A program made the translations under genes and the position numbers. Positions 26,001 through 60,400 of a stretch of 64,000 nucleotides of DNA are shown piece after piece (positions within the stretch are counted from its first letter, which is position 1; each line of letters begins with the position of its first letter). A model generated the notes under the pieces. The model was not told the origin of the DNA, searched no databases, and saw nothing but the letters and a program-made list of their open reading frames with translations. Source of the stretch: Liolophura sinensis (lineage: Eukaryota; Mollusca; Polyplacophora; Chitonida; Chitonidae). The stretch is from NCBI RefSeq assembly GCF_032854445.1, contig NW_027017953.1, positions 188,501 to 252,500 of the forward strand, read 5' to 3'.

Positions 26001-29000
26001 TCAGAATAGAGGTCAACTGGACATACATGTACCCTGTCAGAATAGAGGTCAACTGGACATACATGTACTGTCAGAATAGAGGTCAACTGGGCATACATGT
26101 ACCCTGTCAGAATAGAGGTCAACTGCACATACATGTACCCTCAGAATAGAGGTCAACTGGACATACATGTACCCTGTCAGAACAGATACCACCTGGACAT
26201 ACATGTACGCTGTCAGAATAGAGGTCAACTGGACATACATGTACCCTGTCAGAATAGAGGTCAACTGGACATACATGTACCCTGTCACAATAGAGGTCAA
26301 CTGGACATACATTTACCCTGTCACAATAGAGGTCAACTGGACATACATGTACCCTCAGAATAGAGGTCAACTGGACATGCATGTACCCTCTGAATAGAGG
26401 TCAACTGGACATACATGTACCCTGTCACAATAGAGGTCAACTGGACATGCATCTACCCTGTCAGAATAGAGGTCAACTGGACATACATGTACCGTCAGAA
26501 TAGAGGTCAACTGGACATGCATGTACCGTCAGAATATCACATCAATTCACAGCAAACAGCAACCTGATGTTTTGAAACAGTTCTATTCTTTCTCTTTCAC
26601 TACAAAGGTAATCTCCAGACATTAAAGAAATAATCGACAACTTAAAAGAAGCTTATTTAGGATAATCTGTTGATTGGAAATTATTGATATACAATGTAGC
26701 CTCGCTATAAGATGCCTCGATATAGCGCCTAACCAGATATAACTTGACCGAAATCTTGTCCCCCAAAAATCGGTGGTGTACTTTCATGTGAGAACAGCTA
26801 AAACTGCAAACGATTTTTCATCCAGAAATATATATGAATAACGCAACATCATTTCCTTCATTTCCTACTCTTGGTGTGTGACCAATGTGTTATTTGATAT
26901 TTTAGGCTTAAGGCTTTGGCTTTTAAACATAATGCCAGCGTAAGCAAAAAGAAATGGATTTTTCTATGGACTCACAGCGACCGCATTGGTGAGAGGCTCC
27001 TGTGTCATTACGCTGCACTTGCGCACTAACCAAATGAGCCACGGAGGCTCCCCTTTCAATAAATACTGATAACTTTATTCAGATTATTGAATGGCTATAA
27101 TGCTATGTCAGTGAGATTTGGCTTACCTGCATGCTCATATGCGAGTTGAGATGAACTCAAGGCTTCCTAATTTTTTCCCCTTTCCTTCATTTAATACACT
27201 GGTAGGGCATGATATACAATAAAATGGTGAACATTATTTTTTTTTCTTATTCAGTACCTATAACATAGTCACATGATCGGGTTGACAGTTGTCCGCAGTC
27301 CACCATTTAGAATTTAAGGCATCTAAGTTCCAGGAGGTACTTCTGATACAAGCAAATATGGGCAAACTCGATACCAAACGCACTGTAGCTAATTTTATTT
27401 TTAAAAATTTAAAATTAAAGGGGATGAAACTACGTTACTTGAATTTAGCTTGTGGAAATGGTTAACATTCACCTAGATCTGCACATCAGCTCATGCCTGA
27501 GATCTTGTGATATGAGTCTAGCTTTGCGAGACATGATTTGCAGAATGGTACTGAGATCCCTCTGGTCCGTAATGTAACTTGTGTACCGTAGAATACATGT
27601 ACTAGTTGAATCCTTAGGTAACAAAAAATCTCACGTGTTTATACAGTTTAGTATTAAAACCACATGTAACAATAAGAAAGCATTTGACAAAACCCATTTT
27701 GCATCGATAAAGCTTTGATCTATGTCAAAATCATGACTTACAGGTACACGTAAGGCTGGCTGTAGCCCTTATACTGGATCCCAAGGCCATTTCATGATAG
27801 CACGAGGTAGCCTATAACACACTGAGGAACCTGTCCCCAAAGCAGGGTGATATAGCGAGGATACACTGCATTTATTTGATTGATATTTTTCCTCAATTAC
27901 AGTCAGATTCAAGGAATGTGAGGAAAACCCTACCTCATCACAACCATCTCCTGACATAAGCCTGAACTGAGCTGTAAGACAAGTCTGTGGCTTGCAGACC
28001 AGACAACTGATGGTTAGCCAGTCTCAATACGGTGTATCAAAATACAGAGAAGACATGTGGAACATTTTATTCTTACTTTGGTGGTGGTAAAGTATATTCT
28101 GTCTTTGTACTGGTAGGCCACCATGTTAACCTCTTCTGCATAGCGAGCTGTCTGTACAAATATCATCCAGTTACAGTCGTACTCGTTGCTCTGGTCCAGC
28201 CAAGTCCAGCTGCCACTCCCATCAAAGATCTTCAAAACACACAGACAGAACTACAGGTGAGCATTTGACACAGAGAGAAGTATTATGTACCATTCACACA
28301 TGGTCGTCACTTCATGCCATACTCAACAATATTTGATTTAAGTCAGTGGTCAGGTTTAAGCTGGAAAGAACTGACCAGATGTCGGAAGAAAACTCCCCAC
28401 CTTGCCAGGTCTTCAGCCTGATTTGCTTGTGCTGCCGCCCTGAACTCTACCTGGAGTCTGATTTGCTTGTGCTGCCGCCCTGAACTCTACCTTGAGTCTG
28501 ATTTGCTTGTGCTCCTGCCGTGAACTCTACCTTGTGTCTGATTTGCTTGTGCTGCTGCCCTGAACTCTACCTTGAGTCTGATTTGCTTGTGCTTCCTGTC
28601 CCGAACTCTACCTTGAGTCTGATTTGCTTGTGCTGTTGCCCTGAACTCTACCTTAAGTCTGATTTGCTTGTGCTGCCGCCCTGAACTCTACCTTGAGTCT
28701 GATTTGCTTGTGCTGCTGCCCTGAACTCTACCTTGAGTCTGATTTGCTTGTGCTTCCTGTCCCGAACTCTACCTTGAGCCTGATTTGCTTGTGCTGTTGC
28801 CCTGAACTCTACCTTGAGTCTGATTTGCTTGTGCTGCCGCCCTGAACTCTACCTTGAGTCTGATTTGCTTGTGCTGCTGCCCTGAACTCTACCTTGAGTC
28901 TGATTTGCTTGTGCTGCTGCCCTGAACTCTACCTTGAGTCTGATTTGCTTGTGCTGCTGCCCTGAACTCTACCTTGAGTCTGATTTGCTTGTGCTTCCTG

Positions 29001-32000
29001 TCCCGAACTCTACCTTGAGTCTGATTTGCTTGTGCTGCCGCCCTGAACTCTACCTTGAGTCTGATTTGCTTGTGCTGCCGCCCTGAACTCTACCTTGAGT
29101 CTGATTTGCTTGTGCTTCCTGTCCCGAACTCTACCTTGAGTCTGATTTGCTTGTGCTGTTGCCCTGAACTCTACCTTAAGTCTGATTTGCTTGTGCTGCC
29201 GCCCTGAACTCTACCTTGAGTCTGATTTGCTTGTGCTGCTGCCCTGAACTCTACCTTGAGTCTGATTTGCTTGTGCTGCCGCCCTGAACTCTACCTTGAG
29301 TCTGATTTGCTTGTGCTTCCTGTCCCGAACTCTACCTTGAGTCTGATTTGCTTGTGCTGTTGCCCTGAACTCTACCTTAAGTCTGATTTGCTTGTGCTGC
29401 CGCCCTGAACTCTACCTTGAGTCTGATTTGCTTGTGCTGCTGCCCTGAACTCTACCTTGAGTCTGATTTGCTTGTGCTCCTGCCGTGAACTCTACCTTGT
29501 GTCTGATTTGCTTGTGCTGCTGCCCTGAACTCTACCTTGAGTCTGATTTGCTTGTGCTTCCTGTCCCGAACTCTACCTTGAGTCTGATTTGCTTGTGCTG
29601 TTGCCCTGAACTCTACCTTAAGTCTGATTTGCTTGTGCTGTTGCTCTGACGACGGCTCTTCTTCACAGACAGGTGCCTCCAAAGGACCAAACATGGTGCG
29701 CTTCTGCACTATTTTCTTGGCCACAACACTGTATACTGAACAAGAGAAAAGGGTTTATCATCATTACACAACAAATACAAAACACAGGTAGATACATTTA
29801 CAATGAATTTGAACTTAACAAGATACACTGATAAAACTATGGTCTGTTTCTATTAACTTGTCACCTATATTCAGCCATCTGTGAAACTTGTCACCTATAT
29901 TCAGCCATCTGTCATTCTCACAACCAAAATTTCCTTTCATCAGTGACACAGAATTACACAAGATCTACATATCCATATGTAGAACTCCTTTAGCTTTTTC
30001 TCGACACCAAGAACTCAAGAACGCAATCTCAAACATGGCAGCTTCAGAGACAGGGCTTAGAGTAATGTCAATTGTAGTTTAGGTAATTGGTGTCCCTCTC
30101 CATCAAAAATACTGGACTTCACCCATTCTCCAGCACGCCCTCGTTGTCACCAAAGGCCATGGGTTCTTGGTGTAAAAAACTGATGGAATTATCATCATGT
30201 GAACTTGTGATTCTTACTTTAATCCAAAAGAATATTTCATCAGCATAAATTAATTTACTCATTTGGTCTTACCCGCTTTACTCAAGAATTTAGCATTTTT
30301 TTGAGAGTAGGTTTATGGCTGGAAGAAAACCAGAACAGTTGTTGTAAGCAACCACTCATAAGGTACCAGACACCTCCTGACCTAAAGTACCCACTCTTCA
30401 CCAGGTACCTGACGCACCTCCTGACCTAAAGCATTCGCTCTTCACGAGGTACCTGACACACCTCCTGACCTAAAGCAACTGCTCTTCACCAGGTACCTGA
30501 CGCACCTCCTGACCTAAAGCACTTGCTCTTCACCAGGTACCTGATGCACCTTCTGACCTAAAACAACTGCTCTTCACGAGGTACCTGACACACCTCCTGA
30601 CCTAAAGCAACTGCTCTTCACCAGGTACCTGACACACCTCCTGACCTAAAGCAACTGCTCTTCACCAGGTACCTGACGCACCTCCTGACCTAAAGCACTT
30701 GCTCTTCACCAGGTACCTGATGCACTTTCTGACCTAAAGCAACTGCTCTTCACCAGGTACCTGACACACCTCCTGACCTAAAGTAACTGCTCTTCACCAG
30801 GTACCTGACGCACCTCCTGACCTAAAGCACTTGCTCTTCACCAGGTACCTGATGCACCTTCTGACCTAAAGCAACTGCTCTTCACCAGGTACCTGACGCA
30901 CCTCCTGACCTCAAGCACTCGCTCTTCACTAGGTACCTGACGCACCTCCTGACCTAAAGCAACCACTCTTCACCAGGTACCTGATGCACTTTCTGACCTA
31001 AAGCTCTTGCTCTTCACCAGGTACCTGACGCACCTTCTGACCTAAACCAACCGCTCTTCACCAGGTACCTGATGCATCTCCTGACCTAAAGCAACCGCTC
31101 TTCACCAGGTACCTGATGCACTTTCTGACCTAAACCAACCGCTCTTCACCAGGTACCTGATGCATCTCCTGACCTAAAGCAACCACTCTTCACCAGGTAC
31201 CTGATGCACTTTCTGACCTAAAGCTCTTGCTCTTCACCAGGTACCTGACACACCTCCTGACCTAAAGCAACTGCGCTTCACCAGTTACCTGACGCACCTC
31301 TAACCACTGGGCAAGCAGGGGGCTCTGCAGTACAACATAACCACTGGGAAAGCAGGGGGCTCTACATAACAAGATAACCACTGGGCAAGCAGGGGGCTCT
31401 ACAGTACAACGTAGCCACTGGGCAATGACAGGGCGCTTTATATCATACAATAACCATCCTTATGCTTTCCTCCCACCCTGCCGTTTTCAAGAGCTTAGTT
31501 TTATAAAGTAACACGTACAGTTGAGTCCCTCTGAGGACAGCCCAAGGCCCTTGAGGGACAGCATATGGGGTACGGTCAGCTTGGCCTTGCTGGGGATTTC
31601 ACGGTCTCGCACCTTGATAAGTGGACCATGGGAGGGACAGTTAGCTGTGTAACTCTTTCCACAGTCCTCACACCCTAAAAGGTACAAGACAATGACAAAA
31701 AACAACATATAGATAATGTATTTCGATTTAAACTTCAGTGATTTTAATTTTAGCAAACATTGTTATGAAGACACTTCTCAAATTATTGTATATTAAAGGC
31801 TATAGAAGTTTTCTTTGTTAAAGTAATTCATAAAGTGAATTTCATTCAAGATCACACAATGTAACAATGTGTGGAAAATGTATATTCAAGATCACACAAT
31901 GTAACAATGTGTGGAACATGTTCATCCCTTATCTCCCTCTGTTTCTGAATAGACACACATGATAATGTCACTGGTGGTGTTCATCAGTCATGTTTGCAGA

Positions 32001-34215: not shown

Positions 34216-34272
34216 ATATGAGAAGTATTGGTCGGTATCCAGGAGACACCACACCTATTCATCTGGAGTTAG
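34014..34272 (-). CDS. First coding exon of the PR/SET-PLAG gene
   Basis: Coding is placed from ATG at 34215 to 34014, 67 codons plus one base (phase 1), with donor TCACTCT|gtgagt. A possible acceptor (tgctttaacag) puts the exon start at 34272, with an in-frame TAG upstream of the ATG, so 34216-34272 would be 5' UTR. The peptide begins MADQVHLASAAMET and is Ser/Thr/Pro-rich and disordered-looking. The terminal T joins GG of the next exon to make the conserved Trp of the WCEDC motif, which confirms the junction. An additional upstream coding exon using another acceptor cannot be excluded. Confidence 0.72.
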
Positions 34273-35793
34273 CTGTTAAAGCAAAAGATAACATGACTGA
34301 AACTATGAACATGAGTCAGAATTCTGTGAAACAGGTTTTATCAAATGAGACAAGCCAAAGGTTCTCGTGGTGATTTCGCCTATTATTGTATTGTATTTAA
34401 CTCCTTAGAAAACTATTTAAACACTCTTTATATGGACATGAAATACCATGAAAACGTCCACAAAGAGCAAGAAATGTACTCATTTGAATATATACTGGTA
34501 TTTTAAGCCATACCGTATTCAAAAAATTTTATTTATATTAAGGCATTTCTGGGCAGTCAGAAATAAAATTTATTCAGCCTATTAACTACACCTGCTCAAA
34601 CTGAAGATAAGTTTCTTGTAGTATTCAGCCACAAAATGCCCTGTGAATAATTTTAGAGCGACTGTTCAATGGCAATCAACTGCCCATTTCACTTTGGACA
34701 TATTCGGCGTCTGTTGTGCGCTGGGGTGACATTTCTCATATGCATGTAATTTATACATGAAGGTGGAAACTTTATTTCTGCCTGATGGTGCACTTTTGTG
34801 TCAATAATGTTTAACGGTATTATTTCTAAAGGGAAATCACTCCCATGTTCTGTCACTCCGACAAAGTTTTTTTGAGGGTGTCAAATTTAAATGTAAATTC
34901 TCATGTTTTACTGAAGGCAGAACATCCATCTTCCGGGCAAATATAATCTAAGGGACTGTAATGTGACATACTTCACGCGTAGATATTTAAACCATGGCGC
35001 TGCTGGCCTCAGTGGCTTCACTGATACATGTAACGTAGGCTACATGGGAAATAGGCATACTGCTTGCTCAAGCGTGTCAGGAAGAACACGTGTCTAGCAA
35101 GAGATGAAGGATTCAGATTATCTTAATTTTATTTCCATTCAGAATGATTACAAAGCATTAGGGAGATTCTTGAGCTTTTTCAAAGTCGAACACTTGTATC
35201 GTCAATCACGATCATATCAAACGTCACACATGATCAACCAGTGACAGAAACTGAGAAAGTGTTGACGTCGCACAGTGCAGGCTACTTCCTACAGTTAGTC
35301 GGTGTATGATGCTTTTGGAGTGACTTGACAAACGGCCAAGCTAACAACAACGTTCACGTAACTAATCGAAGCTGAACTACCACGGATTGACAGATGCCTC
35401 TTTGATCAGTGGCCATCTTGCCGCTCTCCTCAAAGTTTGGGGCACCCGATAGGGGTTGATACCCCAACAAACATTCTTCATTTTGTCACATTCAGCGCAA
35501 AGTTGGCTTAGTGACGTCGTGTAAAAATGAATGCGTCATACAGCTACAGTAAAAAGACAATCAGTCCTATTAATGACATGCGAGTAGCGAGCAAATATCA
35601 CGTTAACTTTAAAATTTTTACACACCTCTTCCCTGCGGAAGCCATGGACATTGGCGCTATGAATCCTGGGATGGAAAACCCCTGTGACGTCACGACCACT
35701 GGATTTCCCCCAACAGCCAGGAATTTTCATTTTGTGAGCTCTTACATTGGAAGATTTCGTTCTGAGACTGGATTAGTGTGCGATCAGGAGAGT
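34273..35793. promoter_or_regulatory. Probable bidirectional promoter region between PR/SET-PLAG and CHCHD7
   Basis: About 1.5 kb separates the putative start codons of two divergent genes. A YY1-like AAGATGGCC is present on the - strand at about 35411-35419 (gccatcttgccgctc on +). Minisatellites are absent from this interval, unlike the flanks. Transcription starts are not determinable; the right part may include CHCHD7 5' UTR or an upstream in-frame extension. Confidence 0.5.
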
Positions 35794-35895
35794 ATGGAAA
35801 GTTTCAGAGAAAGAGGCACTAACCAGTCGGAGCGGTTGGCAAACATTAGAAAAGCCTCCCGCCTAGCTGACGAAGAGAAAAATCCTTGTTTACAT
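35794..35895 (+). CDS. CHCHD7: CHCHD7 exon 1 (coding part)
   Basis: It begins MESFRERGTNQSERLANIRK and ends KNPCLH at CAT|gtaggt. The frame is open upstream to 35527, so the exon and possibly the protein may be longer. The chosen ATG gives a length closest to the family. The first cysteine of the first CX9C motif is here; its partner lies in exon 2. Confidence 0.75.
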
Positions 35896-38800
35896 GTAGG
35901 TGCGAACTTCTTCAGTCTCAGTGAATTTCTGATAGGCACTGTTAGGGCTGAGACTACATATAGTTTTTTTTTTTTTTCACCATTGAGCAGGGTGATGGTC
36001 CGCGAAAATTTTCATTCCACTCAACATTCTTAGTTAGTGATGTCTGAGTGAGAATGACAGGGTTTATGTTTTATGTAGGAGCGGGAGATATCATACAGAT
36101 GCCTGAGTGAGAATGACATGGTTTATGTTTTATGTAGGAGCAGGAGATATCATACAGATGCCTGAGTGAGAATGACATGGTTTATGTTTTATGTAGGAGC
36201 AAGAGATATCATACAGATGCCTGAGTGAGAATGACATGGTTTATGTTTTATGTAGGAGCAGGAGATATCATACAGATGCCTGAGTGAGAATGACATGGTT
36301 TATGTTTTATGTAGGAGCAGGAGATATCATACAGATGCCTGAGTGAGAATGACATGGTTTATGTTTTATGTAGGAGCAAGAGATATCATACAGATGCCTG
36401 AGTGAGAATGACATGGTTTATGTTTTATGTAGGAGCAAGAGATATCATACAGATGCCTGAGTGAGAATGACATGGTTTATGTTTTATGTAGGAGCAGGAG
36501 ATATCATACAGATGCCTGAGTGAGAATGACATGGTTTATGTTTTATGTAGGAGCAGGAGATATCATACAGATGCCTGAGTGAGAATGACATGGTTTATGT
36601 TTTATGTAGGAGCAGGAGATATCATACAGATGCCTGAGTGAGAATGACATGGTTTATGTTTTATGTAGGAGCAAGAGATATCATACAGATGCCTGAGTGA
36701 GAATGACATGGTTTATGTTTTATGTAGGAGCAGGAGATATCATACAGATGCCTGAGTGAGAATGACATGGTTTATGTTTTATGTAGGAGCAGGAGATATC
36801 ATACAGATGCCTGAGTGAGAATGACATGGTTTATGTTTTATGTAGGAGCAGGAGATATCATACAGATGCCTGAGTGAGAATGACATGGTTTATGTTTTAT
36901 GTAGGAGCGGGAGATATCATACAGATGCCTGAGTGAGAATGACATGGTTTATGTTTTATGTAGGAGCGGGAGATATCATACAGATGCCTGAGTGAGAATG
37001 ACATGGGTTATGTTTTATGTAGGAGCAGGAGATATCATATATATGTCTGAGTGAGAATGACATGGTTTATGTTTTATGTAGGAGCAGGAGATATCATATA
37101 TATGTCTGAGTGAGAATGACATGGTATATGTTTTATGTAGGAGCAGGAGATATCATATATATGTCTGAGTGAGAATGACAGGGTTTATGTTTTATGTAGG
37201 AGCAGGAGATATCATACAGATGCCTGAGTGAAAATGACTATGACCGTGACAAGTGCGAGATGGCTTTTCAGAACTACCAGAACTGCAGAGCTTTCTGGGT
37301 ATGTACACTACCAAGCATTATAGCACCATTATAGCATACGAATGTACATGAAGTATAGTCTTCTAGGTGTACTTGGCTGCTACTCATCTGTGGTTTGTCT
37401 ACTGAGGATGTAGAGAGATTTCTACAGTGTATGGATAGGCGAACAAGTTAATCATACAGCACACTAGCATTCCTTAGCACACTGGCTTTCCTTAGCACAC
37501 TAGCATTCCATAGCACACAAGCATTCCATAGCACACTAGCATTCCATAGCACACTGTCATTCCATAGCTCATCACAGGCAGTTAAACCATCAACACACCA
37601 GAGGCATACCATAACTCACCAAAGATACATCACAGGCTCTCCAAAGGCACACCACAGCTCTACAAAGGCACACCACAGCCTCTCCAAAGCCACACCACAG
37701 CTCACTCTCTCAAAGATACACCACAGGCTCTCCAAGGGCACACCACAGCTCACCAAAGACACACCACAGGCTTTCCAAAGACAAACCACAGCTCACCAAA
37801 GATACACAACAGGCTTTCCAAAGGCACACCACAGCTCAACAAAGATACACCACAGGCCCGCCAAGAGCACACCACAGCTCACCAAAGATACACCACAGGC
37901 CCGCCAAGAGCACACCACAGCTCACCAAAGATACACCACAGCCTCACCAAAGGCACACCACAGCTCACCTAAAATACACCACAGGCTCTCCAAAGGCACA
38001 CCACAGCTCACTCTCTCAAAGATACACCACAGGGTCGCCAAGAGCACACCACAGCTCACCAAAGATACACCACAGCCTCACCAAAGGCACACCACAGCTC
38101 ACCAAAGATACACAACAGGCTCTCCAAAGGCACACCACAGCTCACCAAAGATACACCACAGGCTCACCAAGAGCACACCACAGCTCACCAAAGATACACC
38201 ACAGCCTCACCAAAGGCACACCACAGCTCACCTAAGATACACCACAGGCTGTCCAAAGGCACACCACAGCTCACTCTCTCAAAGATACACCACAAGCTCT
38301 CCAAGAGCACACCACAGCTCACCAAAGACACACCACAGGCTTTGCAAAAAAAAACAAACCACAGCTCACCAAAGATACACAACAGGCTCTCCAAAGGCAC
38401 ACCACAGCTCACCAAAGATACACCACAGGCTCTCCAAAGGCACACCACAGCTCACTCTCTCAAAGATACACCACAGGCTCTCCAAGAGCACACCACAGCT
38501 CACCAAAGACACACCACAGGCTTTCCAAAGACAAACCACAGCTCACCAAAGATACACAACAGGCTCTCCAAAGGCACACCACAACTCTCCAAAGGCACAC
38601 CACAGGCTGCAAAAGTCTCACCACAGCTTACCAAACATACAACACAGGCTCCCCAAAGGCACAACACAGCTCACTCTCTCAAAGATACACCACAGGCTCC
38701 CCAAGGGCACACCACAGCTCACTCTCTCAAAGACACACCACTGGCATTCCAAAGACAAACCACAGCTCACCAAAGATACACAACAGCTTCTCCAAAGGCA

Positions 38801-41800
38801 CACCACAGCTCACCAAAGACACACCACAGGCTTTCCAAAGACAAACCACAGCTCACCAAAGATACACAACAGGCTCTCCAAAGGCACACCACAACTCTCC
38901 AAAGGCACACCACAGGCTGCAAAAGTCTCACCACAGCTTACCAAGCATACAACACAGGCTCCCCAAAGGCACAACACAGCTCACTCTCTCAAAGATACAC
39001 CACAGGCTCCCCAAGGGCACACCACAGCTCACTCTCTCAAAGACACACCACTGGCATTCCAAAGACAAACCACAGCTCACCAAAGATACACAACAGCTTC
39101 TCCAAAGGCACACCACAGCTCACCAAAGACACACCACAGGCTTTCCAAAGACAAACCACAGCTCACCAAAGATACACCACAGGCTCTCCAAGGGCACACC
39201 ACAGCTCACCAAAGACACACCACAGGCCCACCAAGAGCACACCACAGCTCACCAAAGATACACCACAGCCTCACCAAAGGCACACCACAGCTCACCTAAA
39301 ATACACCACAGGCTCTCCAAAGGCACACCACAGCTCACTCTCTCAAAGATACACCACAGGCTTGCCAAGAGCACACCACAGCTCACCAAAGATACACCAC
39401 AGCCTCACCAAAGGCACACCACAGCTCGCCAAAGATACACAACAGGCTCTCCAAATGCACACCACAGCTTACCAAAGATACACCACAGGCTCGCCAAGAG
39501 CACACCACAGCTCACCAAAGATACACCACAGCCTCACCAAAGGCACACCACAGCTCACCTAAGATACACCACAGGCTCTCCAAAGGCACACCACAGCTCA
39601 CTCTCTCAAAGATACACCACAAGCTCTCCAAGAGCACACCACAGCTCACCAAGACACACCACAGGCTTTCCAAAAAAAAAAAAAACACAGCTCACCAAAG
39701 ATACACAACAGGCTCTCCAAAGGCACACCACAGCTCACCATAGATACACCACAGGCTCTCCAAAGGCACACCACAGGCTCTCCAAAGGCACACCACAGCT
39801 CACTCTCTCAAAGATACACCACAGGCTCTCCAAGAGCACACCACAGCTCACCAAAGACACACCACAGGCTTTCCAAAGACAAACCACAGCTCACCAAAGA
39901 TACACCACAGGCTCTCCAAAGGCACACCACAACTCTCCAAAGGCACACCACAGCTGCCCAAAGTCTCACCACAGCTTACCAAACATACACCACAGGCTCC
40001 CCAAAGGCACAACACAGCTCACTCTCTCAAAGATACACCACAGGCTCTCCAAGGGCACACCACAGCTCACTCTCTCAAAGACACAAGACTGGCATTCCAA
40101 AGACAAACCACAGCTCACCAAAGATACACAACAGCTTCTCCAAAGGCACACCACAGCTCACCAAAGATACACTACAGGCTCTCCAAAGGAACACCACAGC
40201 TCAACAAAGATACACCACAGCGTCACCAAAGGCACACCACAGCTTACCTAAGATACACCACAGGCTCTCCAAAGGCACACCACAGCTCACTCTCTCAAAG
40301 ATACACAACAGGCTCTCCAAATGCACACCACAGCTCACCAAAGATACACCACAGGCTCTCCAAAGGCACACCACAGCTCACCAAAGATACACCACAACCT
40401 CACCAAAGGCACACTACAGCTCACCTCAAAGATACACCACAGGCTCTCCAAAGGCACACCATAGCTAACCAAAGGCACACCACAGGCTTCCAAAAACAAA
40501 CCACAGCTCACTAAAGATACACCACAGGCTTTCCAAAGGCACACAACAGCTCATCAAAGATACACCACAGGTTCTCCAAAGGCACACCACAGGCTGTCTA
40601 AAAACAAACCACAGCTCACCAAATATACACCAAAGGCTTTCCAAAGGCACACAACAGCTCATCAAAGATACACCACAGGTTCTCCAAAGGCACACTACAG
40701 GCTCTCCAAAAACAAACCACAGCTCACTAAAGATACACCAGAGGCTTTCCAAAGATACACAACAGCTCATCAAAGATACACCACAGGCTTTCCAAAGGCA
40801 AACCACAGCTCATCAAAGATACACCACAGGCTCACCAAAGGCACACCACAGCTCATCAAAGATACACCACAGGCTTTCCAAAGGCAAACCACAGCTCATC
40901 AAAGATACACCACATGCTCACCAAAGGCACACAACAGTACAACTAAGATGCACCAAAAGCTCTCCAAAGGCACGCCACAGCTCACCAAAGATATCCCACA
41001 GGCTCACTAAAAGCACAGCACTGCTCATCTAAGACTGTAATTCTTTATTTGTTTATTGAGGGATTTCCCACAGCTCTATAGCCACGAGGGGATCTCCTCA
41101 ACAAAACATCAACGTATATACACCAACATAGAAAACAAAGAGAACAAATGACATGTACATGTACAGAATAAGGTGATGGGAACAAAGAAAGATCAAAATC
41201 AAATCATATTACTGCTGGGCTTGGATGATGAATCTATTGGACATGCGTATAAAATTATGCACAGATTTTAAGATCAATTGATTATTATTCACGCTTAGTT
41301 CAGGTGAACCAAATAAGAGTAAAGTACAAATGTGTTTAGAACAACTAGTCAAAAATACAGAAGGGTGAACTCCAGGAGATATAATTCTAAAGATGCTTTT
41401 TAGCATGTGCTTTCTATGAGTGGCATTGGTGGGGCATTCAAGGAAATAATGAGATGCATTTTCACATTTATGTTTACATTTACTACCTGACTGATCATCG
41501 ATAATGTTATATTTAAAGAGGTCACCGTGAAGAGCGCTCAGTTCCATTCTCATTCTACGGAGCACAACAAAGGTGTCAAATGAATTATACACAGATGTTA
41601 GATCACAGATAATACTGTCTTGAGAGTACAAAAAGTTCTTAACTGTTTCCAGTGAAGAGTTTTGGATATGAACAGGCAATGAATTCCATTCTTTAGTAGT
41701 CTTGGGAAAGAAGGAAGAAGAGAAAATCTGAGTTTGGCATTTAAATAATCGAAAGTGATGTCTATTTCTAAGATTGTAGGCATTTGTTTCGCTGTTATAC

Positions 41801-44800
41801 TTTTGAGTTAGTAAGGTCTTTAGGTATGGAGGAGAGAGCCCATTGATGATTTTATGAAAAAAACAGAAAACAGGATCTATGCTGACTGTATAAGGGTTCC
41901 CATTTTAGTTCATTTAAAAGAGATTTATATGAAGTTTGACATAAGCCTCCAGTACATAACAATGCTGCTCGGCGTTGGACATTTTCCAGTGAGTTGGATA
42001 TTGAAACGCTGCAGTTGTCAAATAGAAAATCTCCATATTCAATAAAAGACCTTATCAAGCGGAAGTACAGTGTGATCATACACTTTCTAGTTAGTGTTCG
42101 CCTGGCTCGACTAATCATACTCAGTTTCATATTACTTGTCTTAACTATAGCTCTTACATGCTCATTCCATTTACCATTGTGTTGCAGAATAATTCCAAGA
42201 TGTTTATGGGACGGAACGCTCTTCACATCTATGCCATCTAAATACATTCTCAAATGTGAGGGATTCTTTTTCAATGATATTAAGAGATAAACAGTTTTGG
42301 TAGAATAAAATGACACAAGCCATTGACTAGCCCAGTTGGACAGACATTCAAGATCACGATTAAGTTTAGCCTCAGATGTTGCTAAGTCTAAGATTTCTTC
42401 AGACAAGGATGTGTCATCTGCAAATATGTTAATATTACATGCAATATTTATACTAATATCATTGACAAAAATTAAAAAGAGAAGTGGACCCAATACAGAG
42501 CCTTGTGGGACACCAGCATATATTGGATGAGTTTTGACTCAGTGCCGTTAAGGCAAGCCTTAATTTTTCTGTCACACAAATAATCTTTTAACCATGCAAG
42601 TAGAGGATCTTCAATACCCAACTGCTCTAACTTAAACAGGAGACCATCATGCCAGACTTTATCAAATGCCTTACTGACATCCAAAAATAGTAAACAGGTG
42701 TCATTTCCACTGTCAAGACTTTTGTATATATCATGATATATATCATATCATCTTTGTAAGCTGGCATAAAGTCAAATCCCCACGTTTAAATCCAGAGTTC
42801 TGTGGTATAAGAAGATTATTTGACATACATTACTCACACAGATGTTTATACACGACCTTCTCCAAGACCTTAGAAAGAGAGTGTTGAAGGGACACTGGTC
42901 GATAATTAGAAACGTCATGTCTATCTCCTTTTTTAAATACAAGGCAGACTTGAGAGAGCTTTCATGCTGCTGGAAAGACAGCTGTCCGTACGGAATAATT
43001 AAAAAGATTCGTTACGAAAGCTGCAATACAATCAGCAGAATTTTTAAGCAAGAAGTTGTTCATACCATCAGTACCTGAGGCTTTCCGTGTATTCAGAGTC
43101 TCAAGGAAATGTTTAATCTCATTTTCACAGGTTTGAGAACATGATTCTGTAACATACGTAAAAGGTGGTAAGACAGGTACTGTGTAGTGAGGGGCCGACT
43201 GAGATGCGAAAAATTTACAGAATTCATTCGCCTTTTCAGCGTCATTTGACATGTTTTTGCCATTGACAGCAAGAGGAGAATAGGCGGTTTTGCTTCCAAT
43301 CCTGGTAGAGATTTCATTATCGACCAGTATGTTTTTGTATCCAGCTGGGGGTTGGAGAGTTTAACTTTTAAATGTGTGAAGTTAGGCAGTATACGCAGTA
43401 TTGCCTGACGTTTAGCATTATTGGCCTCCCTTCTAGATATATAATATTGAAACTTATCTCCATCGGACTTAGTCCGTTTGTATTTTTTGAAATAACGAAA
43501 CCTCACTCGTATCTTTTACCGAACATCGTTGGTCATCCAAGGCTTGTCACGTGGTTTAATAGTGACTTTCTTATTCGGAATAAATTCTTTGCAACATGAC
43601 AGAAACAAACTGTTTCCAGACAAATGATTTGTCATTAACATGGGAAAAAATATTACCAACGCCATCAAATGGTGTAACAGAGATAAGACTGCGCAGACCA
43701 TGCAAATTGGCACATTTGAAGTTCCACACGTCTTACAAAAGCCTTTGGGTTATCATTACATAAGATGTTTATAGTACAATAAATAGTACAATGGTCGAGA
43801 TTAGCCATTGGTGAGGCAACTCCGTAGTCAATTACATAACCAATACAATCCGCTATAATTAAGTCAAATACATAAGCATCATCATCAGTATATCGAGTGG
43901 GTTCATTAGTTAGTTGAAAAAGATTTTTCCCAGCTACCATATCATATAGGCTCACTTTTAATTCGCTCATGTCGTGGTATTTTTCCCAGTGTGGACATCT
44001 GTCATTAAAATCACCCATTATTAACATATGGCATCGGGATTTTCTGTTAAGGCCGAAGTTAAATTTTCCTCCAGATTACTTAAAAAAAGCTCACGTAAAT
44101 GAGCCGGTTGGTTAGGTGGGCGGTAACATGATGCAATCAGCACACTTTTGTTATTCTGTTCCACCATTATCCATATCATCTCATTGCCATTCTCTAAATC
44201 CTTACGTCTAGTAACATTAAGAGATTCCTTGCAATGAATTGCCACCCCTCCTCCCTGTCTGTCTCTGTCCTTTCTTCCTATACAATACCCATCTAGATTA
44301 ACAGTATCATCAGGAATATCACCACTAAGCCAGGTTTCACTCACACATATACCAGCATAATTATATTCCTTTGATAATACAGTGGTCTTATTTCATCTAA
44401 CTTAAAATAAGACGACAGCTGATCATCACCTTGAGCCAATAAACTCCTGGCATTAAGATGATAAATAAGATAAATTGTGCTGATTTGGGGGTGGCAGGTT
44501 TCTATGTACATCACCACACCTTATTAAGGTTGCCATGTGTATAACTAATGAGTAATGCAGATTGCATAATGTACTCAGAACAGAAAAAATTAATATACCA
44601 GTAAGGGATTCAATTCCCTTACTGGTATTTTCAAGGAATATAAATTGCAAGCCTTCAAATAATGTAAATAATTTTCGAAGATGAGTCACTTTATAAGACA
44701 TATAATTATGCCATGCCCCAATTGCCACTCTGTACTGACTTATGTTATCCATGATGTACCAGTAATAAACAAAGAGATTGCGAGTGAAAGCACATGCACT

Positions 44801-47506: not shown

Positions 47507-47663
47507 TGATTACAACAAGGAGACACATTATGAGAATGACATTGCTTCTAGGAAATGAAAATATTAAAGAGTATTTGTTTGGATCCATTTCTAATAGAAT
47601 ATTGTATATTTATTTTTCCCAGTTAAATGACAGAGTGTTCTCCATCACCTACATGTATGTTTT

Positions 47664-47720
47664 CCTCATCAGCTATGTCTGCCTCATCAGCTATGTCTGC
47701 CTCATCAGCTGTGTCTGCCT
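47664..47720. repeat. 18-bp repeat, 3 copies, in the CHCHD7 3' region
   Basis: 'ctcatcagctatgtctgc' is tandemly repeated three times with one change. Confidence 0.8.
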
Positions 47721-47792
47721 CCTGGTTGCCCAGTAAAACATGGTTGTACAAGTCAGGATAAACCTGAATCGAGGATGATGTCAGAGCGGACA

Positions 47793-47810
47793 AATAAATA
47801 AATAAATAAA
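47793..47810 (+). promoter_or_regulatory. Candidate polyadenylation signals of CHCHD7
   Basis: Four overlapping AATAAA hexamers (47793, 47797, 47801, 47805) lie about 290 bp after the stop and are followed by a T-rich stretch. They could instead be the A-rich tail of a retroelement. Confidence 0.5.
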
Positions 47811-48968: not shown

Positions 48969-49222
48969 GGCTTCCATGACCTAGTGCTCCTGTCAGCGCA
49001 GCGCAATGACCCAGGAGCCTCTCTTCAATGCGATCACTTTGAGTTTTATGCCCAGCTCATGGTGGCTTCCTCTCTGACCATACATGGGAAGGTCTGCTAG
49101 CAACCTGCAGATGGTTTGGGTTTCTCCCGGGCTCTGCTTATTTTTCTCCCACCACAATGCTGGAGCTGTGAAATATTCTTGAATGTGGTGTAAGACATCA
49201 ATCAAATAAATAAATAAAAATC
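48969..49222 (+). mobile_element. tRNA-derived SINE, full-length but diverged
   Basis: Head 'gcaatgacccaggagcctct', body with tggcttcctctctgaccatacatgggaaggtctgctagcaacctgc, then ctcccaccacaatgctgg, and an A-rich tail aaataaataaataaaaa. It matches the reverse complement of 54609-54866 along its length. The A-box region is eroded. Confidence 0.8.
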
Positions 49223-49529
49223 ATATACCTGAGTATGCTGTAACTGGTTGCCCAGCCAGGTATTACGTCAACTGATATCTGACATGATGCATTTAATACA
49301 TAGACAGACGACACGTAAGAATCCATTCAGGTGGAATATCTGACATCACAAGGACTGATCTGTTTTATTTACAAACCTTATCTGAATTAGGTTCATTATT
49401 AGTTATCACATAATATATGTATGTTTTAATGCAAAAGTTAATTTTTATTACTTACTTAAAAAATTTAATAATAAGTTTAATAAAATATGCGAATTTTAAA
49501 GAAAGTGAACAAATATAAAAATATACTAT

Positions 49530-52500: not shown

Positions 52501-53592
52501 GCAGCAAACTGCTTCCTGAGAGGGTGAAAATGTTTATATCATACAGGAACTATGACAACAACAGAAACAGTAAACAGTCAGCTTCCCGAAAGGGTGGAAA
52601 CGTTTATATCATACAGGTACTATGACAACAACAGCAGCAGCAAACAGTCTGCTTCCTGAGAGGGTGAAAATGTTTATATCGTACAGGTACTATGACAACA
52701 AACAGAAGCAGCAAACTGTCTGCTTCCTGAGAGGGTGAAAATGTTTATATCGTACAGGTACTATGACAACAAACAGGAGCAGCAAACTGTCTGCTTCCTG
52801 AGAGGGTGAAAATGTTTATATCGTACAGGTACTATGACAACATACAGAAGCAGCAAACTGTCTGCTTCCTGAGAGGGTGAAAATGTTTATATCGTACAGG
52901 TACTATGACAACAAACAGGAGCAGCAAACTGTCTGCTTCCTGAGAGGGTGAAAATGTTTATATCGTACAGGTACTATGACAACAAACAGGAGCAGCAAAC
53001 TGTCTGCTTCCTGAGAGGGTGAAAATGTTTATATCGTACAGGTACTATGACAACAACAGCAGCAGCAAACAGTCTGCTTCCTGAGAGGGTGAAAATGTTT
53101 ATATCGTACAGGTACTATGACAACATACAGAAGCAGCAAACTGTCTGCTTCCTGAGAGGGTGAAAATGTTTATATCGTACAGGTACCATGACAACAACAG
53201 GAGCAGCAAACAGTTTGCTTCCTGAGAGGGTGAAAATGTTTATACCGTACAGGTACTATCACAACAAACAGGAGCAGCAAACAGTCTGCTTCCTGAGAGG
53301 GTGAAAATGTTTATATCGTACAGGTACTATGACAACAACAGAAGCAGCAATCTGTCTGCTTCCTGAGAGGGTGAAAATGTTTATACCGTACAGGTACTAT
53401 CACAACAAACAGGAGCAGCAAACAGTTTGCTTCCTGAGAGGGTGAAAATGTTTATACCGTACAGGTACTATCACAACAAACAGGAGCAGCAAACTGTCTG
53501 CTTCCTGAGAGAGTGAAAATGTTTATATCGTACAGGTACTATGACAACAAACAGGAGCAGCAAACTGTCTGCTTCCTGAGAAGGTGAACATT
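49530..53592. repeat. 71-bp minisatellite between convergent genes
   Basis: About 57 copies. The core is 'gtgaaaatgtttatatcgta' then catgtactatgacaacaaacaggagcagcaaactgtctgcttcctgagagg. Units of 65-71 bp arise from aacaaac/aaca and loss of tgtctgc. It lies downstream of both CHCHD7 (+) and SRD5A (-). Confidence 0.95.
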
Positions 53593-53865
53593 TTAGGAAA
53601 CGTGTAAAACAGGTGTATGTGTCAGTGTCATTATCCACACAAATACAAATCAGGAGTTTGGTCTGTCACAGTGATTCAATACGTAGGCATAATGTGCTCA
53701 CAGTTAACAATCTCTTCATTTACATCTATAACAAAACTATCATCAATGAAAATATCTAAGTAGGCAACACGTAGATATTTTAACAGCCCACACCATTTTC
53801 CTGTAGCGCCTATAGCACTCATGGCCCATGACAGTTCTGCTTTCTGTAGTAACACTGTTGAGTAC
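53593..53865. other. Unique spacer, nothing recognised
   Basis: Unique sequence between two arrays in the 3' region of SRD5A. Open frames on the - strand here are short and lack similarity to the reductase. Confidence 0.5.
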
Positions 53866-54290
53866 CATAGATGTGAACACCACAACATGGCAGACATGAA
53901 CACCACAACATGAAAGACACGGACACAACAACATGATAGCCGAGAACACCACAACATGGCAGACATGAAGACCACAACGTGATAGACATGGACACCACAC
54001 TATGATAGACACAAACACCACAATATGATAGATGTGAACACCACAACATGGCAGACATGAAGACCACAACATGAAGATCACAACATGATAGACACACACA
54101 CCACAATATGATAGATGTGAACACCACAACATGAAGACCACAACATCACAGACACGGACACCACAACATGATAGACACAGACACCACAACATGACAGACA
54201 TGAACACCACACCATGATAGACATGAACACCACAACATGATAGACACGAACACCACAACATGATAGACTTGAACACCACAACATCATTTT
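53866..54290. repeat. 24-bp minisatellite in the SRD5A 3' region
   Basis: About 18 copies of 'caccacaacatgatagacat' plus gaac, with catggcagacatgaa variants. It starts about 80 bp after the SRD5A stop on the - strand, so it is probably in the 3' UTR. Confidence 0.93.
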
Positions 54291-54367
54291 AAAACAAAGT
54301 TATATTAAACAAGACTTCAGCTACATGTAGAACACAATGTAACTGTCATAGAACAATTCCATTTTGT

Positions 54368-54431
54368 CTAAAATATAAATGGAATAAGAGCTTTTCTATT
54401 CAAAGGGTATAGTTCAAACTGCTGCTTGTAC
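54368..54431 (-). CDS. SRD5A-type last exon
   Basis: The acceptor is ttcttttttcag. The exon completes the Trp codon (TG|G) and encodes YKQQFELYPLNRKALIPFIF then TAG. KF..YP..R.A.IPF.F at the extreme C-terminus is diagnostic of 5-alpha-reductases. Confidence 0.93.
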
Positions 54432-57400
54432 CTGAAAAAAGAAAGGAAAACTTCTACAGAGCATTGTCTTTGTAACACCACATTACATCAGAGATAACAG
54501 AATTCCTCAATGTTAGTATTTGTTGTAGGCCACTAAATGCATGGTATGGGTGAGGTGTATACAGGTCTTGTATCTCTATCCATGAGTGTATCACTGTTTG
54601 TGGTCACGGTTTGATTTATTTATTTGATTTGTGTTTTACGCCATACTCAAGAATATTTCACTTATTCGACAGCAGCCAGCATTATGGTGGGAGAAAACCA
54701 GGCAGATCCCAGGGGAAACACACGACCATCCGCAGGTTACTGGCAGACCTTCCCACGTACAGCCAGAGAGGAAGCCAGCACAAGCTGGACTTGAACTCAC
54801 AGCCACCGCATTTGTAAGAGGCTCCAGGGTCATTACACTGCGCTAACCAACTGAGCCACGGATGCCCCTGGTACCAGTTTGATGCAGTACAGTGTTATAT
54901 ACTGTACCATCAGTCACATGGTTCAGGTGATTCAGGTGCATATACAAGTCCTGTATATGCTAGCTACCATCTAATAGATGAATGTGTTATATACTGTACC
55001 ATCAGTCACGTGGTTCAGGTGATTCAGGTACATATACAAGTCCTGTATATGCTAGCTACCATCTAACAGATGAATGTGTTATATAGTGTACCATCAGTCA
55101 CATGGTTCAGGTGATTCAGGTGCATATACAAGTCCTGTATATGCTAGCTACCATCTAACAGATGAATGTGTTATATAGTGTACCATCAGTCACATGGTTC
55201 AGGTGATTCAGGTGCATATACAAGTCCTGTATATGCTAGCTACCATCTAATAGATGAATGTGTTATATACTGTACCATCAGTCACGTGGTTCAGGTGATT
55301 CAGGTACATATACAGTCACGTGGTTCAGGTGATTCAGGTACATATACAAGTCCTGTATATGCTAGCTACCATCTAATAGATGAATGTGTTATATACTGTA
55401 CCATCAGTCACGTGGTTCAGGTGATTCAGGTGCATATACAAGTCCTGTATATGCTAGCTACCATCTAACAGATGAATGTGTTATATAGTGTACCATCAGT
55501 CACATGGTTCAGGTGATTCAGGTGCATATACAAGTCCTGTATATGCTAGCTACCATCTAACAGATGAATGTGTTATATACTGTACCATCAGTCACGTGGT
55601 TCAGGTGATTCAGGTACATATACAAGTCCTGTATATGCTAGCTACCATCTAACAGATGAATGTGTTATATAGTGTACCATCAGTCACATGGTTCAGGTGA
55701 TTCAGGTGCATATACAAGTCCTGTATATGCTAGCTACCATCTAACAGATGAATGTGTTATATACTGTACCATCAGTCACGTGGTTCAGGTGATTCAGGTA
55801 CATATACAGTCACGTGGTTCAGGTGATTCAGGTACATATACAAGTCCTGTATATGCTAGCTACCATCTAACAGATGAATGTGTTATATAGTGTACCATCA
55901 GTCACATGGTTCAGGTGATTCAGGTGCATATACAAGTCCTGTATATGCTAGCTACCATCTAACAGATGAATGTGTTATATAGTGTACCATCAGTCACATG
56001 GTTCAGGTGATTCAGGTGCATATACAAGTCCTGTATATGCTAGCTACCATCTAACAGATGAATGTGGTATATACTGTACCATCAGTCACGTGGTTCAGGT
56101 GATTCAGGTGCATATACAAGTCCTGTATATGCTAGCTACCATCTAACAGATGAATGTGGTATACTACATGTGGCTGTGATACAAGCAAGTATTGTGAACT
56201 GCATGTATACTTCATCTGTGATTATGGAATAGGTAGGTCTATTATACGTTACCATCTGTGACTGTGGTATGGGTGTGGTACAAGTAGGTCTATTATTCAT
56301 TACCATCTGTGATTGTGGTATGGGTGTGGTACAAGTAGGTCTGATATGTTACCATCTGTGATTGTGGTATAAGTAGGTCTATTATACGTTACCATCTGTG
56401 ATTGGGGTATGGGTGTGGTACAAGTAGGTCTGACATGTTACCATCTGTGATTGTGGTATGGGTGTGGTACAAGTAGGTCTGATATGTTACCATCTGTGAT
56501 TGTGGTATGGGTGTGGTACAAGTAGGTCTGATATGTTACCATCTGTGATTGTGGTATGGGTGTGGCACTAGTGGGTCTATTATACATTACCATCTGTGAT
56601 TGTGGTATGGGTGTGGTACAAGTAGGTCTGATATGTTACCATCTGTGATTGTGGTATAAGTAGGTCTATTATACGTTACCATCTGTGATTGGGGTATGGG
56701 TGTGGTACAAGTAGGTCTGACATGTTACCATCTGTGATTGTGGTATGGGTGTGGTGCAAGTGGGTCTGATATGTTACCAGCTGTGATTGTGGTATGGGTG
56801 TGGTACAAGTAGGTCTATTATACGTTACCATCTGTGATTGTGGTATGGGTGTGGCACTAGTGGGTCTATTATACATTACCATCTGTGATTGTGGTATGGG
56901 TGTGGTCCAATAGGTCTATTTTACATTACCATCTGTAACTGTGGTATGGGTGTGGCACAAGTAGGTTTATTATACGTTACCATCTGTGATTGTGGTATGG
57001 GTGTGGTACAAGTAGGTCTGATATGTTACCATCTGTGATTGTGGTATGGGTGTGGCACAAGTGGGTCTATTATACGTTACCATCTGTGATTGTGGTATGG
57101 GTGTGGTCCAATAGGTCTATTTTACATTACCATCTGTGATTGTGGTATGGGTGTGCTACAAGTAGGTCTATTATACGTTACCATCTGTGATTGGGGTATG
57201 GGTGTGGTACAAGTAGGTCTGATATATTACCATCTGTTATAGTGGTATGAGTGTGGTACAAGTAGGTTCATTATATGTTACCATCCGTGACTGTGGTATG
57301 GGTGTGGTACAAGCAGGTCTATTATACGTTACCATCTGTGATTGTGGTATGGGTGTGGTACAAGTAGGTCTATTATACGTTACCATCTGTGATTGTGGTA

Positions 57401-60400
57401 TGGGTGTGGCACAAGTAGGTCTATTATACGTTACCATCTGTGATTGTGGTATGGGTGTGGTACAAGTAGGTCTGACATGTTACCATCTGTGATTGTGGTA
57501 TGGGTGTGGTACAAGTAGGTCTGACATGTTACCATCTGTGATTGTGGTATGGGTGTGGTACAAGTAGGTCTGATATGTTACCATCTGTGATTGTGGTATG
57601 GGTGTGGTACAAGTAGGTCTGATATGTTATCATCTGTGATTGTGGTTTGAGTGTGGTACAAGTAGGTCTATTATACGTTACCATCTGTGATTGTGGTATG
57701 ATCGTGGTATAAAGGTAGCAGCACAGAACATAGTCCACACCAGACCTGCAAGTGACCAGGTTACCAATGTCCTGAAGGAAAAATAGTTCATGTTCAATAC
57801 TGTTCACTCACATACACGTAATTAGGGCAGCTGAGTGATAAGAGAACACCAGGTAGAGAGCTTACGATCCCACCCTCTGTACAAGTTCGCCCAGGTAATT
57901 AGGGCAGCTGAGTGATAAGAGAACACGAGGTAGAGAGCTTACCATCCTACCCACTGTACAGGTTCACCCAGGTAATTAGGGCAGCTGAGTGATAAGAGAA
58001 CACGAGGTAGAGAGCTCACCATCCTTCCCACTGTACTAGTTCCCCCTGGTAATTAGGGCAGCTGAGTGATTACAGAACACGAGGTAGAGAGCTTACCATC
58101 CTTCCCACTGTACAAGTTCCCCCAGGTAATTAGGGCAGCCGAGTGATAAGAGAACACAAGGTAGAGAGATTACCATCCTACCCACTGTACAAGTTCCCTC
58201 AGGTAATTAGGACAGCTGAATGATAAGAGAACACAAGGTAGAGAGCTAACCATCCTACCCACTGTACAAGATCCCCCAGGTAATTAGGGCAGCTGAGCGA
58301 TAGGAGAACACCAGGTAGAGAGCTTACCATCCTACCCACTGTACAAGTTCCCCCAGGTAATTAGGGCAGCTGAGCGATAAGAGAACATGAGGTAGAGAGC
58401 TCACCATCCTTCCCACTGTACACGTTCCCCCAGGTAATTAGGACAGCTGAGCGATAAAACAACACCAGGTAGAGAGCTCACCATCCTACCCACTGTACAA
58501 GTTCACCCAGGTAATTAGGGCAGCTGAACGATAAGAGAACACGAGGTAGAGAGCTTATCATCCTACCCACTGTACAAGTTCCCCCAGGTAATTAGGACAG
58601 CTGAGCAATAAGAGAACACGAGGTAGAGAGCTCACCATCCTACCCACTGTACAAGATCCCCCAGGTAATTAGGACAGCTGAGCAATAAGAGAACACCAGG
58701 TAGAGAGCTCACCATCCTACCCACTGTACAAGTTCCCCCAGGTAATTAGGACAGCTGAGCAATAAGAGAACACGAGGTAGAGAGCTCACCATCCTACCCA
58801 CTGTACAAGTTCCCCCAGGTAATTAGGGCAGCAGAACGATAAGAGAACACGAGGTAGAGAACTTACCATCCTACCCACTGTACAAGTTCCCCCAGGTAAT
58901 TAGGACAGGAGACCACTTCAAACATACCACCATAAGGAATGTAATATCCTGCTGTACCTGTGAGTAAAGTAAGGGGAAATTAACAATCATTTGGTTGTTT
59001 ACTTTGATTTGAACATTTTAAAGTTAGGAGACCCGTGATCAAACTTGGCACTTGTTGCTCCCTCAGCACTGAGAGGTTAGGGTAAGGAAATAGGACTGGT
59101 GGCCCCAGTGTCAATATGTGAATGAGTTGGGTGTCACTTGTGGTGACACTGACAAACATGAATGCAAAACTACAGCTCAATACCGTACATAAAAAACTGA
59201 AATGGTGAATTTGGTAATTTACCGTAATTAATTTGCACACAGAGCATCAGCGATGTAACATCCGCCTTGTGTTTTATACGTATGTAAAACTTCATGTCAC
59301 TATATGATGTACTATTTGAGCTACCAAACATTTTGCTTAACTTTGATTCTAATATGCAATACACTATGTCAGGAATTCAGTAATTTCTGAAATTTAATAT
59401 GTACACACTAAATCATCAATGGAATATCCCCTTCGTGCTATTGTGCTCTGCATATGTGCTAACCATGAGCTCATTACATGCAGTACTGTTTGATATTACC
59501 ATATGGACATATGGTCACACCTTCTCTGTATATCTACATAGAGTATTGGCTCACTGGAACACCATGCCCAGGACACCAGGCATAACACCTCAGCCAGTCT
59601 CTATACAGGCTTGCTGACATCTGACATGACAACTCACAATATTATTGGCCTACTGACACCAGATATGACACCCCATGCAGTCAAAGACATTCTACCAAAA
59701 CACAGTATCAGCTTGATGACACCTGACATGACACTCCACCTAGACACAGTATAAGCTTACTGACAACTGTGATGACCCCCAAACCCCCCACCCCACCCCC
59801 AACAGAGTCACAGTATAGGCCTACTAACCCCTGACATTATACCCCATCCAGACAAAGTATAGACTTAATGACAGCCGGCATGACACTCCACCCAGTCACA
59901 AAATAGGCCGACTGACACCAGACATGACACCCCACGCATCTGACATGAAAGCCCACCTCAACATAGTATAAGTAAAAGAATCAGAGCTGTTAAATGCTTT
60001 TTGTTACCAATTTTCAGCCTTTTGTAAATTTTATGGCCCAGGTGCATAGTTTACTGTTTAAATTAAAAAACAGTCCAACAAGATTTAATACTCATCTTAC
60101 ATTTTTCTGACTGATCATTTAAATTTAAAACTTTTGAAAACTTCACATTAAAAACTTTGATATTATATCTTTAAAACTACAAAATAATATTAAAAATGTG
60201 TGGGCCGCTCTTCAGCTTAAGTGTTCAACTACATGTGTGCCAAATTTCAAAGCATTACAGTATGCTGAAAATTAAAATGACCAAATTTCACCTCTAAGTG
60301 GTTCTAGTATTCTTAATTGACAGAGAAAAGCCATGAATTTTTAACTGACGGGGAAGGGCCCTGCATCCTTAACTGACAGAGAAGGGCGCCTCATCTAACT

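What the first reader, a model, noticed from the sequence alone, without database searches (positions are those of the whole stretch)
28399..58910. Four independent minisatellites built from exon-intron junctions
Arrays at 28399-29640 (donor, 40 bp), 36041-37199 (acceptor, 59 bp), 56200-57705 (donor, 51 bp) and 57820-58910 (donor, 77 bp) each repeat a real splice site with its flanking exon bases. They occur in three different genes. In every case the working junction is the copy nearest the unique exon body, and nearly all copies keep GT or AG. This points to a recurrent process that seeds tandem repeats at splice junctions, tolerated because exon definition picks the proximal site.
Basis: partly seen in the sequence, partly recalled or inferred. 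Interest (0 to 1): 0.9.

Follow-up and report, generated by a model that had tools for sequence, protein, structure and literature searches.

The report
Splice-junction minisatellites in a chiton
In three genes of a chiton (a sea mollusc), short stretches of DNA that straddle the border between coding and non-coding sequence are repeated 14 to 30 times in a row, a structure described before in lancelets, and the reading frame suggests that the copy next to the rest of the exon is the one that works.

Summary
Four tandem arrays repeat a splice junction with flanking exon bases: a donor in a PR-domain/zinc-finger gene (30 full copies, 40 bp), an acceptor in CHCHD7 (20, 59 bp), two donors in an SRD5A-like gene (30 and 14; 51 and 77 bp). 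Homology to solved structures fixes the exons. Extending the exon to a distal copy would bring a stop in 89 of 90 cases. GT/AG is kept in 92 of 94 copies, but 34-78% of dinucleotide positions in each unit are kept as well, so this does not show selection. The genome is the chiton Liolophura japonica. The architecture equals lancelet 'mirages'; my few searches listed no molluscan case. The window is 59% minisatellite, its contig about 48%, samples elsewhere about 5%. Whether junctions attract repeats depends on the null: P 0.056 by rotation, 0.0005-0.0008 by random seeds, post hoc. In array D, 10 of 13 distal units look like in-frame 42-nt mini-exons. No RNA was examined and no genome-wide count was possible.

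The parts
28411..29649 (-). Array A: donor minisatellite, 40-bp unit (about 27 exon + 13 intron), 30 full copies, also fitted with periods of 161 and 201 bp; fills 87% of the intron
29617..29735 (-). PR-domain gene exon a; proximal donor AAG|GTAGAG after 29617
28077..28229 (-). PR-domain gene exon b
21266..21365 (-). PR-domain gene exon c
   Evidence: spliced frame open
15227..17070 (-). PR-domain gene exon d: C2H2 fingers, proline-rich C terminus, stop
31519..31674 (-). PR-domain gene exon z (CxxC...CPxHGP motif; likeness to PRDM proteins recalled)
36039..37242 (+). Array B: acceptor minisatellite, 59-bp unit (about 17 intron + 42 exon), 20 full copies; 89% of the intron
35745..35895 (+). CHCHD7 first coding exon (start set arbitrarily), donor TTACAT|GTAGGT
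37200..37298 (+). CHCHD7 second exon; proximal acceptor ATGTAG|GAG is the last of 20
56225..57712 (-). Array C: donor minisatellite, 51-bp unit (about 18 exon + 33 intron), 30 full copies
57682..57771 (-). SRD5A-like exon S5 (my numbering); proximal donor ATG|GTAACG
57815..58908 (-). Array D: donor minisatellite, 77-bp unit (42 exon + 35 intron), 14 full copies; 96% of the intron; distal units resemble in-frame mini-exons
58867..58957 (-). SRD5A-like exon S4 (my numbering); proximal donor ATG|GTAAGT, strongest U1 match of its array
60928..61025 (-). SRD5A-like exon S3 (my numbering)
54369..54431 (-). SRD5A-like last coding exon S6 with stop

Best explanation
These are mirage-type minisatellites in the chiton Liolophura japonica. 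A short duplication that spanned an exon-intron border expanded into the intron by ordinary tandem-repeat turnover, so that each unit carries a copy of the splice site. It is tolerated because the unique exon body is left whole and the copy next to it still defines the exon; distal copies are mostly passive decoys that end up in the intron. Shown here: the arrays, the junctions, the reading-frame argument, and the minisatellite-rich setting. Inferred: that the proximal copy is the one spliced, that exon definition does the choosing, and that the expansion is neutral. Whether junction-spanning seeds are favoured over other seeds is left open (see the first rival, which does not exclude this one).
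For: Unit dissection and copy counts; exons fixed by homology: PRDM10 E 1.9e-12, CHCHD7 E 2.1e-13, SRD5A E 7e-35; eight modelled introns GT-AG with matching phases. Extending the exon to a distal copy gives a stop in 89 of 90: B 19/19, C 29/29, D 13/13, A 28/29; two of the 90 (one in C, one in D) have lost GT anyway. Same architecture published in lancelets, with normal splicing suggested and copy-number change seen (passages). Contig C14 is minisatellite-dense: 59% in the window, 7,138 of 15,000 bases in five other C14 samples, against 2,955 of 60,000 in ten samples elsewhere and 610, 0 and 0 of 3,000 in three more (two near the ends of C1, one in C15). The assembly is PacBio HiFi with mean read 8,347 bp, longer than any of the four arrays.
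Against: No RNA evidence for which copy is used. In A, 28 of 29 distal copies have the same 9-base donor as the proximal one and the remaining one (28450) pairs better with U1, -8.4 against -6.9, so site strength does not explain the choice; copy 3 of A could be used in frame (+27 aa). Distal copies are not plainly unconstrained: distinct exonic changes are synonymous:nonsynonymous 3:5, 4:3, 0:8 and 5:7 in A-D, 12 of 35 against 6.2 expected at equal rates (P 0.015), fading to 8.9-9.5 expected (P 0.15-0.22) if transitions are 4-6 times likelier; and the exon part varies less than the intron part in C and D, though not in A or B. Under the random-seed nulls four crossings are more than expected (P 0.00045-0.00084), which a position-blind origin does not predict. 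Array D's mini-exon form is not explained by passive decoys.
Confidence: 0.75

Rival explanations
1. Junction-biased seeding: some process tied to splice junctions makes duplications there more often than elsewhere, in molluscs as in lancelets. It can be true together with the best explanation.
For: Four of 13 arrays in the eight modelled introns span a junction against 0.42 expected from random seeds in the same introns, P 0.00084; window-wide seed null 0.37 expected, P 0.00045; recurrence in several lancelet genes.
Against: Rotation of the real array track gives 1.5 crossings on average, P 0.056 (0.040 with 18 junctions); the window was chosen for the pattern; 16 of 20 modelled junctions are not crossed; with more unmodelled junctions the seed P weakens (0.019 at a mean of 1.0). 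Mechanism not tested.
Confidence: 0.35
2. Selected function: array D supplies cassette mini-exons, or arrays of decoy sites buffer weak donors, so repeated junctions are kept for splicing diversity or robustness.
For: In D, 10 of 13 distal units have AG before and GT after a 42-nt in-frame, stop-free block; donors of A and C pair weakly with U1, -6.9 and -6.4 kcal/mol, but so do three of five other donors of the window at -4.5 to -6.9; A copy 3 is usable in frame; a mild excess of synonymous changes at equal rates.
Against: The 35-nt gap between neighbouring blocks is too short for a usual animal intron (recalled), so only non-adjacent blocks could be joined; the synonymous excess fades with a transition bias and D alone gives P 0.12 or more; extension to distal copies of B and C always meets a stop.
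Confidence: 0.07
3. Assembly artefact or collapsed repeat.
For: Contig C14 is the fourteenth of 632, outside the 13 chromosome-length scaffolds, and repeat-rich.
Against: HiFi reads average 8,347 bp while the arrays are 1.1-1.5 kb; copies differ from each other (11, 8, 19 and 14 distinct among 30, 20, 30 and 14 full units). Reads themselves were not seen.
Confidence: 0.03

Closest known systems
Mirages of lancelets: Adh3, globins BflGb6 and BflGb9, TnC (PMC3087553, passages; PMC3902484, passages; the Adh paper PMC117041 itself was not held)
   Same: Tandem repeats of an exon-intron border, 5' or 3', in protein genes; many copies keep AG/GT; splicing suggested to be normal; units of 10-72 bp (Adh3) to 150-160 bp (globins).
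   Different: Here in a chiton; 14-30 copies instead of the 6 and 3 given for BflGb6; four in 64 kb inside a contig that is about half minisatellite; splicing and polymorphism not tested.
Lancelet PGBD5 tandem repeats at splice sites (PMC3902484, passages)
   Same: 60- and 108-bp repeats at splice sites; a predicted exon inside the repeats that the authors left out, comparable to array D's mini-exon-like units.
   Different: 2 or 7 and 3 or 6 copies there, by assembly; described as imperfect.
[quoted passage not shown]
   Same: A duplication crossing an intron-exon border.
   Different: There a new intron arose across the two copies; in array D the intron's acceptor lies outside the array.
Earthworm metallothionein intron minisatellites (PMC12783039, passages)
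   Same: Large minisatellite clusters inside an intron of another invertebrate.
   Different: Monomers of about 180 bp; no junction in the unit in the passages seen.

Membership tests
Mirage minisatellite (as described in PMC3087553) | Tandem repeat whose unit spans an exon-intron border | tested here: met
   Four arrays
Mirage minisatellite (as described in PMC3087553) | Either 5' or 3' border can be repeated | tested here: met
   Three donor arrays, one acceptor array
Mirage minisatellite (as described in PMC3087553) | Many but not all copies keep AG/GT | tested here: met
   92 of 94 full copies over the four arrays; all copies in A and B
Mirage minisatellite (as described in PMC3087553) | Regular mRNA splicing is not disturbed | not testable with these tools
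   No RNA data; reading frame only
Mirage minisatellite (as described in PMC3087553) | Length instability between alleles, somatic or germline | not tested
   A piece of array A was found only at its own place in the assembly; no second allele or reads available
Intron gained by tandem duplication | New intron uses splice sites lying in the duplicated copies at both ends | tested here: not met
   The acceptor of the array D intron (just before 57771) lies outside the array, which ends at 57815
Assembly identity: Liolophura japonica | Scaffold number and lengths equal to the published table | tested here: met
   632 scaffolds, longest 96,433,062, N50 37,343,639, and scaffolds 4, 7, 8, 10, 11, 12, 13 equal G000 contigs to the base; scaffolds 6 and 9 are 3-5 kb longer in the paper and the total is 609,495,693 there against 609,464,459 here; scaffolds 2 and 3 were not fully in the passages seen

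The most novel reading that the evidence does not exclude
Splice junctions are recurrent seeds of minisatellites in at least two distant animal lineages (lancelets and chitons), and some arrays, D being the example, pass through a stage of tandem in-frame mini-exons that could yield new exons or introns.
Probability: 0.2. Interest if true: 0.8.

Novelty: new member of a known kind. Interest (0 to 1): 0.5.

Why it matters
If junction arrays occur in a mollusc as in lancelets, they are not a lancelet oddity, and their rate can be measured in any long-read genome with annotation. They are natural experiments on exon definition (14-30 near-identical competing sites beside one exon) and a possible source of new introns or mini-exons. 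How introns are gained through border-crossing duplications becomes directly testable here with long-read RNA.

Tried and rejected

Selection on decoy splice sites: not needed to explain GT/AG retention. Coding constraint on distal copies: mixed signs, told under evidence against. My first frame for array A was wrong (phase 1); one search repeats it with phase 2 and is the one used. Junction counts rose from 18 to 20 when exon z was found; both results are given.

Genome-wide count of junction arrays: could not be done. The genome search answered only. Unanswered because the machine was busy: array A piece, at last answered in 57; same query answered in 64; COX1; myosin family, meant as a source of exons; zinc-finger exon, meant to find a second allele.

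That the array D intron is absent from human SRD5A2, and is therefore perhaps a gained intron, rests on recalled exon structure and is not claimed.
Full report
What is there. The window is 59% minisatellite: 33 merged arrays with a period of 10 or more and about three or more copies cover 37,842 of 64,000 bases. Between them lie parts of at least four genes: an exon of an AADAT-like aminotransferase, a PR-domain/zinc-finger gene on the minus strand, CHCHD7 on the plus strand, and an SRD5A-like steroid reductase on the minus strand. I built the exons by hand from six-frame translations and compared the spliced peptides with solved structures: PRDM10 PR domain E 1.9e-12 for exons a and b, CHCHD7 E 2.1e-13, steroid 5-alpha-reductase E 7e-35. 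The eight introns with both ends modelled are GT-AG with matching phases.

The four arrays. Wraparound alignment of the gene strand to each unit gives 30, 20, 30 and 14 full copies for A, B, C and D. Each unit spans the real junction, with roughly 27, 42, 18 and 42 exon bases. A, C and D repeat donors and run into the intron; B repeats an acceptor and runs back into the intron. The splice dinucleotide is kept in 92 of 94 full copies. That does not show selection: the mean retention over all dinucleotide positions is 0.93, 0.97, 0.86 and 0.89, and 25 of 39, 45 of 58, 17 of 50 and 51 of 76 positions, the junction counted, do as well or better.

Which copy works. If the exon were extended to a distal copy, the message would meet a stop in 19 of 19 (B), 29 of 29 (C) and 13 of 13 (D) cases, and in 28 of 29 cases for A: 25 inside the extension, three by frameshift in the next exon, while copy 3 would add 27 residues in frame (the A line used a wrong phase). 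So the copy beside the unique exon body is the plausible main site. Pairing energy with U1 does not single it out: in A, 28 of 29 distal copies have the same 9-mer and one distal copy pairs better (-8.4 against -6.9); in C no distal copy pairs better than the proximal one; in D the proximal copy is the best of 14. The geometry, first donor but last acceptor, is what exon definition predicts and what pairing across the shortest intron would not. This step is inference; no RNA was available.

Are distal copies free to vary. Substitutions per site in the exon and intron parts are 0.037 and 0.036 in A, 0.021 and 0.006 in B, 0.022 and 0.065 in C, 0.037 and 0.073 in D, with no common direction. Distinct exonic changes are 12 synonymous of 35, against 6.2 expected at equal rates (P 0.015), 7.5 with transitions twice as likely (P 0.057) and 8.9 with four times (P 0.15). 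A weak trace of constraint, or of exchange with the working copy, is not excluded.

Is it more than chance. I modelled 20 junctions; 4 are crossed by an array that stops inside the exon. Rotating the whole array track gives a mean of 1.52 crossings and P(>=4) = 0.056 (mean 1.36 and P 0.040 with the 18 junctions known). Dropping one seed of unit length per array at random, outside exons, gives a mean of 0.37 and P = 0.00045 (0.33 and 0.00035); doing so only in the eight modelled introns with their 13 arrays gives 0.42 and P = 0.00084. The nulls disagree because the first keeps the density of the arrays and the second asks about their seeds. More unmodelled junctions would weaken the second: a mean of 1.0 gives 0.019. 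The window was also singled out because of this pattern. I therefore treat junction bias as possible, not shown.

Where it comes from. The assembly that holds the window has 632 contigs, with the window in contig C14 of 1.46 Mb. Contig lengths of 96,433,062, 37,343,639, 58,388,612 and seven others equal the table of the Liolophura japonica assembly, which also reports 632 scaffolds, HiFi reads of mean 8,347 bp at 14x, and 13 chromosome-length scaffolds (PMC11068029, abstract and passages). The total differs by about 31 kb and two scaffolds by 3-5 kb. The arrays are 1.1-1.5 kb, shorter than a mean read. Contig C14 is special: five 3-kb samples hold 76, 75, 9, 18 and 60% array sequence, against 4.9% over ten samples and 60 kb elsewhere and 20, 0 and 0% in three 3-kb samples from near both ends of C1 and from C15. 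The sampling is small and the thresholds of the scripts differ slightly.

What is known. Tandem repeats of exon-intron borders are called mirages in lancelets: Adh3 with length and somatic instability, globins BflGb6 (6 and 3 units in two haplotypes) and BflGb9, with RT-PCR suggesting normal splicing and a model for intron gain (PMC3087553, passages); PGBD5 and TnC (PMC3902484, passages). The searches that looked for mirages or for minisatellites at splice sites showed no molluscan case among the titles listed, but one search listed 20 of 188 papers, the library lacks most subscription papers, and none asked for molluscs by name. The present arrays meet the structural features of mirages; splicing and polymorphism are untested. 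So I file them as a new member of a known kind in another phylum.

Array D. Its 77-bp unit consists of a 42-nt exonic block and 35 nt of intron that in most copies begins GTAAG or GTGAG and ends in a pyrimidine-rich stretch and AG. Of 13 distal units, 11 have the AG before the block, 12 have the GT after it, and 10 have both; the block is a multiple of three and stop-free in all 14 copies. Each could in principle be an in-frame cassette exon of 14 residues repeating part of the enzyme, so D's distal units, though barred as extended donors, are not barred as cassettes. The 35-nt spacing is too short for usual splicing between neighbours (recalled). I offer this as an idea; AG at that one place has a chance of about one in sixteen.

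Verdict. The process it proposes is plausible and has precedent in lancelets, but this one window cannot establish it.

Noticed in passing
The gene lies head-to-head with CHCHD7, as PLAG1 and CHCHD7 do in human (recalled). PLAG genes may descend from a PR-domain gene. One literature search for PLAG1 with PR domain and invertebrates found no paper.
   Followed up: partly
whole window; contig C14: Contig C14 is about half minisatellite, roughly nine to ten times the density of samples from other contigs.
   Followed up: partly
15227-15335 (minus): The C-terminal coding end of the zinc-finger exon (QHTAIPHTQHTQTTQHSH) runs into the minisatellite family at 13506-15335.
   Followed up: no
57815-58908 (minus): Distal units of array D resemble in-frame 42-nt mini-exons flanked by AG and GT in 10 of 13 cases.
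   Followed up: partly
54611-54868, also 48989-49225 and 26967-27055: An interspersed repeat, perhaps a SINE, with matches in 7 of the 18 genome samples compared.
   Followed up: no
41209-44392 (minus): Pieces of a non-LTR retrotransposon in separate frames, with endonuclease and reverse-transcriptase matches; part of it matches sample L011 at 92%.
   Followed up: no
28411-29649: Array A is also fitted by periods of 161 and 201 bp (four and five units), a sign of recent expansion by blocks.
   Followed up: no
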